64,000 nucleotides of DNA from Alistipes sp. (GTDB lineage Bacteria > Bacteroidota > Bacteroidia > Bacteroidales > Rikenellaceae): positions 1-64,000 of the forward strand of contig JAIDUK010000006.1 in assembly GCA_029060215.1 (NCBI GenBank). Reading direction: 5' to 3'. Under the pieces are notes generated by a model that did not search any database, was not told the origin of the DNA, and saw only the letters and a list, made by a program, of their open reading frames with translations. Each line of letters opens with the position of its first letter. Within the stretch, counting starts at the first letter, position 1. The translations under genes were made by a program, and so were the position numbers. Shown piece after piece: positions 1 through 60,502 of the stretch.

Positions 1-1
1 G

Positions 2-90
2 CGGAGAGAACGAGATTCGAACTCGTGGTACGGATTACTCCGTACGTCGGTTTAGCAAACCGGTGGTTTCAGCCACTCACCCATCTCTCC
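2..90 (-). tRNA. tRNA-Ser (anticodon GCT)
   Basis: Read on the minus strand, the ends form a perfect 7-bp acceptor stem (GGAGAGA with TCTCTCC), followed by discriminator G. The T arm carries GTTCGAATC. The anticodon loop reads TTTGCTA, giving GCT, which decodes AGC/AGT serine codons. A long variable arm (TACGGA/TCCGTA) is the class II hallmark of tRNA-Ser. Position 1 would be the first C of a CCA end, but the window edge hides whether CCA is encoded. Confidence 0.95.
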
Positions 91-44624: not shown

Positions 44625-44643
44625 CGTTATGGGCATGAAAAAA

Positions 44644-44740
44644 GGGTGAGCTACTTATATCGCACCGCTGCGACCGCATACCCTTGCTCGATTCCTCGCC
44701 TAGGGGGGTTCTGCAGGAGCTGGTCGTATAAGACTCACCC
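44644..44740 (-). ncRNA. ffs: Signal recognition particle RNA (small bacterial type)
   Basis: On the minus strand the ends pair (GGGTGAG with CTCACCC, then CTTATA with TATAAG). The apex is CGA-GGAA-TCG, the conserved GGAA tetraloop, flanked by AGG on the 5' side and AGCA on the 3' side, which is the symmetric-loop signature of helix 8 bound by Ffh. The length is about 97 nt. A T6 run follows the closing stem and a consensus promoter lies 6 bases upstream. A covariance-model search would settle it; I am fairly sure. Confidence 0.87.
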
Positions 44741-44745
44741 GACCG

Positions 44746-44776
44746 CAAAAGTAGGAAAATTTTATATCTTTGCAAA
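44746..44776 (-). promoter_or_regulatory. Promoter of the SRP RNA
   Basis: On the minus strand: TTTG (44773-44776), a 19-base spacer and TACTTTTG (44746-44753), with transcription expected to start about 6 bases on, at the 5' GGG of the RNA. This is an almost ideal Bacteroidota promoter, and its fit to the predicted RNA 5' end supports the SRP call. Confidence 0.8.
44765..44772 (+). promoter_or_regulatory. -7 box (TATCTTTG) of mltG
   Basis: It lies 17 bases before the mltG ATG. Its TTTG is adjacent to the complement of the -33 TTTG of the SRP promoter, together forming the palindrome TTTGCAAA at 44769-44776. Confidence 0.65.
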
Positions 44777-59068: not shown

Positions 59069-59076
59069 TACCTTTG
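59069..59076 (+). promoter_or_regulatory. -7 box (TACCTTTG) of the structured RNA
   Basis: It matches TAnnTTTG. Transcription would start near 59082. No clear TTG -33 box was found. Confidence 0.5.
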
Positions 59077-59081
59077 TCTCC

Positions 59082-59286
59082 GGCAGCCTTGTTCAGGGTT
59101 GCCGACATTCGGACATAAAGCGCATCGGCTTTACTTTCTTACTGATGAAACTTGGCGGTTTTTGAAGGTGTAGGAGTAGCAAGGTTGGTGCTCGCGTCGT
59201 TTTTCGGCGTGGGCATTCGTATCGTTCTCTACACCGGGTACGCCAAGACCTCATCAGTGGTTCGTGCGAAGTGCTCGCGCTTTTTG
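59082..59286 (+). ncRNA. Unassigned structured RNA (6S-like rod) with intrinsic terminator
   Basis: The core 59141-59258 folds into one long interrupted hairpin. ACTGATGA pairs with TCATCAGT, CTTGGCG with CGCCAAG, GGTGTAG with CTACACC, all perfect. Then comes a 14 by 12 base bubble (59174-59187 against 59217-59228), and an apical 12-bp stem (59188-59199 with 59205-59216) that needs G.U pairs, as RNA would. A terminator follows: GTGCGA/TCGCGC (59264-59280) and T5. A small hairpin (CGGCA/TGCCG) lies near the 5' end. The rod with a central bubble recalls 6S RNA, but I cannot confirm the family. It could also be a leader of the PAP2 gene. Confidence 0.6.
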
Positions 59287-59320
59287 TTGTCCGGGAAACG
59301 ATGAACCTGATCCGAATTCT

Positions 59321-60502
59321 ATGAAGTTTTCCGTTTGTTTGCTGGCCCTCGCTTGTTTGTGGGCGCCCGGCCGTTCCCTCGCCGCGCAGCGCGACAGTCT
59401 CGGCCACGGCCGGTTGGCCATCGCCGCGGTTCCGTTGGTTTTGGGCGGTGCCGCCATGACTTTTTGCGACCGCGATTTCCGCGAGTTGCGCAATAGTTAC
59501 GCCGTCGGGTTCCGTCACGACTACGACGATTATCTCCAGTACGCTCCCTTGGCTTTGACTTGGGGATTGAAGGCTTGCGGCGTTAAGAGCCGCAGTTCTT
59601 GGGGGCGGATGATCGTTTCCAACGCGTTTTCCGCCGCCGTGATGGCCGCTTCGGTCAATTCGCTCAAATATTCCGTGCGGGTCGAGCGGCCCGACGGTTC
59701 CACCCGCAATTCCTTTCCGTCGGGCCATGCCGCCACAGCTTTCATGGCGGCCGCCATCCTTCATAAGGAGTACGGCCATCGCAGTCCGTGGTTCAGCGTC
59801 GGGGGTTATGCGGCCGCCGCCGCTACCGGCATCACCCGTCAGCTCAACAACCGCCATTGGATGAGCGACATCTTGGTCGGTGCCGGCATCGGTATTCTTT
59901 CCGTCGAGTTGGGCTATTTCTTCGCCGATTTGATTTACCGCGACCGGGGGCTCTCGGTTCTCGACATGCCCGCCGAGTTCGATAGGTTGCGGCGGCCGTC
60001 GTTTTTGTCGTTGCACGTCGGGGCCGCCGCTGCTTTGGGCAGTTATTCGGTGTTGTCCGGCCATGAGGTCCGTTTCGCCGCCGGTCCGGTGGCCGGGATC
60101 CGGGGTGCTTGGTTCGCTACGCCTTACGTCGGGGTCGGCGGGCGTCTCGGGGTCGGCAGCATGCGGTTGGCCATCGATGCCGCGACACAGGACGAGGCGC
60201 AGTACAGTGCTTCGGTCTCTGCCGGGCCTTGTTTTTCCTATCCCCTCACGGATCGTTGCGCTGTCGGGTCGCATTTGTCCGGCGGGTACGAGTATTTCAA
60301 GCGGATGCGCAGTTCGGTCGGCGACTTGGGCGATCGCGGCGGTGCGTCGATCGGCACCGGACTTTCCGTCACTTGCCTTGTCTCCACCGGTTTCGGCGTC
60401 CGCTTCGCGGTCGATTACGACATCGTCTCGCCCGTGTTGCGCGGGTCGGCCGAGTGGTTGCATAAGTTGACCGTCGGCATGGAAGTCTGCACGCTTTTCT
60501 GA
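59321..60502 (+). CDS. PAP2-family phosphatase with C-terminal beta-rich domain
   Basis: A 393-residue exported phosphatase of lipid phosphates or similar. Signal peptide (to about 21). The three PAP2 motifs are intact: KYSVRVERP (Lys116, Arg123, Pro124), PSGH (133-136) and TRQLNNRHWMSD (Arg173, His179, Asp183). Beyond about residue 220 the protein is a run of amphipathic beta-strands ending in Phe, like a small outer membrane barrel. It starts 35 bases after the structured RNA terminator. ATG at 59321 fits the signal peptide best. Confidence 0.85.
   Translation: MKFSVCLLALACLWAPGRSLAAQRDSLGHGRLAIAAVPLVLGGAAMTFCDRDFRELRNSYAVGFRHDYDDYLQYAPLALTWGLKACGVKSRSSWGRMIVSNAFSAAVMAASVNSLKYSVRVERPDGSTRNSFPSGHAATAFMAAAILHKEYGHRSPWFSVGGYAAAAATGITRQLNNRHWMSDILVGAGIGILSVELGYFFADLIYRDRGLSVLDMPAEFDRLRRPSFLSLHVGAAAALGSYSVLSGHEVRFAAGPVAGIRGAWFATPYVGVGGRLGVGSMRLAIDAATQDEAQYSASVSAGPCFSYPLTDRCAVGSHLSGGYEYFKRMRSSVGDLGDRGGASIGTGLSVTCLVSTGFGVRFAVDYDIVSPVLRGSAEWLHKLTVGMEVCTLF

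What the first reader, a model, noticed from the sequence alone, without database searches (positions are those of the whole stretch)
59082..59286. A long, well-formed RNA rod with its own promoter and terminator
Three perfect stem segments (8, 7 and 7 bp), a near-symmetric bubble and a 12-bp apical stem held partly by G.U pairs fold 118 bases into one rod, followed by an intrinsic terminator and preceded by a TAnnTTTG box. That order is what a free-standing small RNA gene looks like. The shape recalls 6S RNA, whose bubble mimics an open promoter, but the sequence does not let me assign it. A leader of the PAP2 gene is the main alternative.
Basis: partly seen in the sequence, partly recalled or inferred. 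Interest (0 to 1): 0.72.

Follow-up and report, generated by a model that had tools for sequence, protein, structure and literature searches.

The report
Widespread switch-like RNA before surface-protein genes
The folded RNA in this gut-type bacterium is one copy of an apparently undescribed RNA element, found across the phylum Bacteroidota, that sits at the start of messenger RNAs for mostly exported proteins and carries three strands that compete to pair, as an on/off switch would.

Summary
The rod is real, but it is not 6S RNA and probably not a free-standing sRNA. It is one of 7 copies in this genome of a multi-copy structured RNA, up to 8 per genome sampled and 12 or more in one MAG. The family occurs across Bacteroidota and has no match in Rfam 15. 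All five rod helices covary strongly. Most copies start 66-140 nt downstream of a TAnnTTTG promoter and lie just upstream of a same-strand gene with no promoter of its own. Those genes are mostly unrelated in sequence but 75% look exported (background 26%); in the window the gene is PAP2. So this is a 5' leader. The supposed local terminator hairpin is not conserved. Instead a tail strand T, directly before a conserved U-run, pairs with the 3' arm (A3) of the rod's tip, as strongly as the tip's own 5' arm (A5) does, and all three strands covary. T also pairs with a site before the start codon (T'; absent from the window copy). I infer a cis-acting attenuator or riboswitch-like switch with an unknown signal. 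About half of the Bacteroidales relatives, not the window copy, also carry an in-frame micro-ORF of AUG, 0-4 codons and a stop.

The parts
59069..59076 (+). TACCTTTG, Bacteroidota -7 promoter box; start of transcription expected near 59083
   Evidence: Sequence; same box in 133 of 174 relatives' upstream regions against 18 +/- 4 shuffled, median 96 nt before the rod
59081..59104 (+). P0, variable 5' hairpin CGGCAGCC...GGTTGCCG
   Evidence: Sequence and MFE fold; hairpins of other sequence at the same place in relatives (by eye)
59110..59115 (+). 5' strand of the outer closing helix (CGGACA), pairs with 59288-59293
   Evidence: MFE; 5' flank against 3' flank own vs swapped z -8.6, flanks without A/U-runs z -4.0
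59117..59132 (+). P1, conserved hairpin AAAGCGCATCGGCTTT; its AAAGCGC can alternatively pair with GCGCTTT at 59277-59283
   Evidence: Conserved in relatives as AAAGCGYWNGCTTT; folds
59139..59260 (+). The rod: H1 59139-59148/59251-59260, H2 59151-59157/59241-59247, H3 59167-59173/59229-59235, apical helix A5:A3
   Evidence: z -6.8; on 80 distinct relatives 94.6% of cells paired, 32 of 36 pairs with double changes, covariation score 0.651 vs 0.202 shuffled and at most 0.081 slid
59187..59199 (+). A5, 5' arm of the apical helix (GGTGCTCGCGTCG)
   Evidence: own A5:A3 vs swapped z -13 on 44 dissimilar copies
59205..59217 (+). A3, 3' arm of the apical helix (CGGCGTGGGCATT); partner of either A5 or T
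   Evidence: A5:A3 -19.3 and T:A3 -18.7 kcal/mol in the window
59270..59280 (+). T, tail strand (AGTGCTCGCGC), a near copy of A5; pairs with A3
   Evidence: Own T:A3 vs swapped z -14.4, 0 of 100 swaps as strong, 44 dissimilar copies; helix ends within 2 nt of the U-run in almost all of 201 copies
59281..59285 (+). U-run
   Evidence: At least 4 U in 195 of 201 copies
59288..59293 (+). 3' strand of the outer closing helix (TGTCCG)
59321..60502 (+). Downstream gene: signal peptide, PAP2 phosphatase domain, weak outer-membrane beta-barrel match
   Evidence: Pfam PF01569 E 1.5e-13; PF13505 E 0.0067, below cut-off. Relative G008 has the same RNA before the same gene

Best explanation
It is a cis-acting 5' leader RNA, a copy of an apparently undescribed, phylum-wide Bacteroidota family that controls mostly exported proteins. 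Transcription starts at the TAnnTTTG box, and the nascent RNA folds P0, P1 and the rod, whose tip is A5:A3. The tail T then emerges directly before a U-run. If T displaces A5 and pairs with A3, a long helix abuts the U-run and transcription stops early. If the rod, bound to an unknown ligand, protein or ribosome, keeps A5:A3, polymerase reads into the gene. In read-through RNA the outer helix forms and, in many relatives, T is held by T' before the start codon. Shown by sequence: the rod, the three-strand competition, the U-run, the position before same-strand genes without their own promoter, and the enrichment for export signals. Inferred: that the switch acts on termination, which state is ON, and the signal.
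For: Rod covariation: (647 cells with double changes vs 187 +/- 12 shuffled). Three strands: (T:A3 -16.3 own vs -11.7 swapped; A5:A3 -16.1 vs -12.1; controls about 0); sequence fully replaced in distant clades while pairing is kept (e.g. L260 GGGTGTTCC/GGAACACCC). U-run directly after T. No conserved local terminator. Cis position: same-strand ORF of 80 aa or more within 160 nt in 120 of 175 vs 31% at random positions, no excess of promoters between U-run and ATG (4 vs 5.9 expected); 51 of 54 nearest downstream ORFs on the same strand. Export: 95 of 126 vs 26%. T:T' z -14.7 over 172 copies and -6.9 on 44 dissimilar copies. Not in Rfam.
Against: Forcing T:A3 as a nested hairpin in the window costs 34 kcal/mol (-49.3 vs -83.0), because the rod must open. 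So T:A3 must form before the rod is complete, or as a pseudoknot with H1-H3 intact, and a loop of about 51 nt is unusual for a terminator. The window copy lacks T' and the micro-ORF. No transcript data exist here. The T' and outer-helix tests do not correct fully for relatedness. The ligand is unknown.
Confidence: 0.6

Rival explanations
1. A cis-acting leader that works on translation or mRNA stability, not termination: T moves between A3 and T' (a loop just before the start codon), changing access to the start; the U-run is a joining segment or ribosome-binding stretch.
For: T:T' covaries. The outer helix closes the RNA beyond the U-run, so the folded domain includes it. The nested terminator state is costly.
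Against: U-run kept in 195 of 201 copies and placed exactly at the end of T:A3, which translation control does not require. The window copy has no T'.
Confidence: 0.2
2. A trans-acting small RNA (about 200 nt) made by termination at the U-run, with the downstream gene expressed by occasional read-through.
For: Own promoter, U-run, compact fold, multi-copy as for other Bacteroides sRNA families such as FopS.
Against: Nearly always directly before a same-strand gene with no promoter in between. Export signals enriched in those genes. A free-standing gene needs neither.
Confidence: 0.12
3. 6S RNA: the rod with its bubble mimics an open promoter and binds RNA polymerase.
For: Rod shape and length.
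Against: No RF00013 or RF01685 match; 6S-Flavo sits elsewhere, single, in 9 of 10 genomes that carry this RNA; multi-copy and gene-linked; conserved feature is the A5/A3/T competition.
Confidence: 0.02
4. A mobile or repeated DNA element (MITE-like) with inverted ends, the RNA fold being incidental.
For: Multi-copy, inverted GACATA...TATGTC ends, some copies near contig ends and near PDDEXK_2 genes.
Against: Fixed orientation to the gene downstream; strong compensatory change in every helix; no recurrent neighbour gene; 0 viral contigs (by one exact motif).
Confidence: 0.03

Closest known systems
Transcription attenuators and riboswitch expression platforms (e.g. Bacteroid-trp RF01692, his/trp leaders)
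   Same: 5' leader, mutually exclusive helices, U-run after the last strand, gene directly downstream.
   Different: The terminator's 5' arm lies in the tip of a long covarying rod about 51 nt away; no local terminator hairpin; regulon of unrelated exported proteins rather than one pathway; no Rfam match.
6S RNA (RF00013) and 6S-Flavo (RF01685)
   Same: Rod about 120 nt long with internal loops.
   Different: No model match; 6S-Flavo lies elsewhere in the same genomes; several copies per genome; gene-linked.
FopS sRNA family of Bacteroides (PMC11697453)
   Same: Paralogous multi-copy RNA in Bacteroidota linked to surface functions.
   Different: FopS is a single-stranded 5' seed plus terminator hairpin acting in trans; no rod, no A5/A3/T.
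Flavo-1 motif (RF01705)
   Same: Dispersed multi-copy RNA motif of Bacteroidota.
   Different: No match at E up to 5 on copies from outside Bacteroidales; reported in both sense and antisense of transcripts (PMC9723704), whereas this one has fixed orientation.
tetQ leader of Bacteroides CTnDOT (from memory, not checked in a paper)
   Same: Very short leader ORF before a structured leader.
   Different: One gene, antibiotic-induced, translational; the window copy here has no micro-ORF.

Membership tests
6S RNA (RF00013 / RF01685) | Match to the covariance model | tested here: not met
   positive control one search finds 6S-Flavo elsewhere in carriers of this RNA
6S RNA (RF00013 / RF01685) | Binds RNA polymerase and templates product RNAs | not testable with these tools
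   Needs biochemistry
FopS | R1 seed in single-stranded 5' part followed by a terminator hairpin | tested here: not met
   Architecture differs; FopS is stated to be deposited in Rfam, no Rfam match here
Any Rfam 15 family | Match at or near gathering score | tested here: not met
   Window region, 20 loci at gathering score and 24 loci to E 5: nothing on the element
Transcription attenuator / riboswitch-type leader | 5' of a same-strand gene that lacks its own promoter | tested here: met
Transcription attenuator / riboswitch-type leader | Mutually exclusive helices supported by covariation | tested here: met
Transcription attenuator / riboswitch-type leader | Terminator-type helix directly followed by a U-run | tested here: inconclusive
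   T:A3 abuts the U-run, but the loop is about 51 nt and the nested fold is costly
Transcription attenuator / riboswitch-type leader | Signal-dependent change in termination or translation | not testable with these tools
   Needs experiments
Leader-peptide attenuator | Short translated ORF upstream of the switch | tested here: not met
   Window copy has no such ORF; present in 77 of 175 relatives, all with in-frame stop

The most novel reading that the evidence does not exclude
A new phylum-wide class of RNA switch that sets the expression of much of the exported proteome of Bacteroidota, in which a rod-shaped sensor with a three-strand competition drives a terminator whose two arms are about 50 nt apart. 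In many copies its input is a ribosome on a micro-ORF of AUG, 0-4 codons and a stop, so the leader would read translation initiation or termination itself.
Probability: 0.25. Interest if true: 0.92.

Novelty: new variant of a known kind. Interest (0 to 1): 0.8.

Why it matters
A conserved RNA regulator in several copies per genome, across a phylum that dominates gut and many environmental communities, appears to have been missed by Rfam. It would give a direct handle on how Bacteroidota control exported lipoproteins, a TonB receptor and some sigma factors after transcription has started. It also offers an unusually clean three-strand covariation case for testing how a switch decides co-transcriptionally.

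Tried and rejected
6S RNA: no model match, and 6S-Flavo found elsewhere in carriers. FopS: read and rejected. A linked protein or mobile element: all-against-all clustering of flanking ORFs found no recurrent neighbour. Phage origin: exact motif scan of viral contigs gave 0; this tests one conserved motif only. T pairing with the 5' hairpin: no covariation (z -2.3 in the wrong direction). Micro-ORF as a general feature: outside the copies with the GCCTATG anchor there is no clear excess (43 vs 36 +/- 5). Local terminator hairpin: not conserved. Rfp18 of Flavobacterium (PMC9723704) could not be compared because its sequence is in a supplement that is not readable here. Literature searches for a described family found none, but subscription journals and bioRxiv are not held.

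Full report
What was checked. The promoter box TACCTTTG is at 59069-59076. The local hairpin called a terminator (59264-59280) is not better than chance by scan.

The family. A nucleotide search found relatives in the genus, three of them in one genome. Six copies already showed 14 pairs with changes on both sides. A covariance model from these found 6 copies in the window's own genome and matches in 40 of 61 genomes of the family and 46 of 198 of the order. A second model from 102 copies found 7 copies in the own genome and matches in 41 of 296 genomes across the phylum, including other classes. Named carriers include Alistipes, Rikenella, Odoribacter, Dysgonomonas, Tannerella, Bacteroides muris, Prevotella disiens and Hoylesella buccalis, and at least 12 contigs of one Candidatus Symbiothrix MAG. 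Nothing in Rfam 15 matches the element.

Rod covariation. On 80 distinct copies fetched by a short motif outside the rod, not by the model, 94.6% of cells pair, 32 of 36 pairs have double changes, and 647 cells show double changes against 187 +/- 12 when shuffled and 61-83 when partners are slid. The alignment was fitted to the model, which favours it somewhat; the margin is too large for that to explain.

Where it sits. Among 54 copies with long flanks, the nearest downstream ORF was on the same strand in 51; flanking proteins formed no recurrent cluster. Over 175 copies, 120 have a same-strand ORF of at least 80 aa starting within 160 nt, against 31% at random positions, and the stretch between U-run and ATG has no excess of TAnnTTTG (4 vs 5.9 expected). 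Of 126 such genes of at least 100 aa, 95 begin with a signal-peptide-like segment and 44 have a lipobox, against 26% and 6% in background ORFs (simple heuristics). Pfam shows PAP2 (the window gene), LRR/BACON and BspA-type surface proteins, a radical SAM enzyme, a SusC-like TonB receptor and ECF sigma factors. In relative G008 the RNA is about 89-90% identical and precedes the same PAP2 gene.

The switch strands. The tail strand T just before the U-run is a near copy of A5, the 5' arm of the rod's tip, so both can pair with A3. In the window A5:A3 is -19.3 and T:A3 is -18.7 kcal/mol. To test for more than shared sequence, each T was paired with its own A3 and with A3 of other copies. On 44 mutually dissimilar copies own T:A3 averages -16.3 and swapped -11.7 (z -14.4; 0 of 100 swaps as strong), own A5:A3 -16.1 against -12.1, while A3 against the downstream region and T against A5 show nothing. 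Copies from other classes have entirely different letters in all three strands and keep both pairings. The U-run of at least 4 U is present in 195 of 201 copies and the T:A3 helix ends within 2 nt of it almost always. Local folding of the 30 nt before the U-run is no better than shuffled, whereas T:A3 is -10 kcal/mol or better in 197 of 201. So the helix that abuts the U-run is T:A3, with a loop of about 51 nt.

Further pairings. T also covaries with a site T' 30-50 nt downstream, usually in a hairpin loop before the start codon as judged by eye. The 5' flank before P1 covaries with the 3' flank after the U-run, closing the domain (control stretches gave z -1.8 and -2.6, so this is weaker evidence). 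In the window the outer helix is CGGACA/TGTCCG; T' is absent.

Micro-ORF. In 77 of 175 Bacteroidales copies a GCCTATG-type anchor lies 44-104 nt before the rod, and all 77 have an in-frame stop after 0-4 codons (11 directly after AUG); among 73 distinct sequences 73 do, against 28 +/- 4 when shuffled. Copies without the anchor show no clear excess, and the window copy has none.

Reading. The best-supported account is a cis-acting leader with an A5/A3/T switch, most likely on transcription termination. The main weakness is thermodynamic: a nested T:A3 costs 34 kcal/mol in the window once the rod is complete, so the switch must work by kinetics, by a pseudoknot with H1-H3 intact, or at another step such as translation. 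The signal is unknown. No transcript data were available, so termination and direction of control are inferences.

Noticed in passing
L040:1501-1645 and 1775-1840: A copy of this RNA is followed by a DUF805 RNA (RF03081) before a membrane-protein gene: two leader RNAs in tandem.
   Followed up: no
L075:7712-7987, L135:4386-4616, L157:6503-6757, L174 (downstream ORF): Similar 76-91 aa HTH-like proteins (RSVSWLAKKV.CDRSNL.K.LKN) recur directly behind copies in several genera; the two scanned have no Pfam match.
   Followed up: partly
Upstream regions of 77 relatives, e.g. L207, L181, L164, L180: AUG followed directly by a stop codon (start-stop) or by 1-4 codons and a stop, always in frame, after a GCCTATG-type anchor.
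   Followed up: partly
L252:1761-2336, L267:954-1559, L246:1-1269: ECF sigma factor genes and a SusC-like TonB receptor gene behind copies outside Bacteroidales.
   Followed up: no
L115, L117, L168: Some copies lie beside PDDEXK_2 (transposase-like nuclease) genes; one such gene confirmed by Pfam (L168), the others judged from sequence.
   Followed up: no
window 44640-44747 (-) and 1-90 (-): Bacteroidales small SRP RNA and tRNA-Ser(GCT); ordinary.
   Followed up: yes
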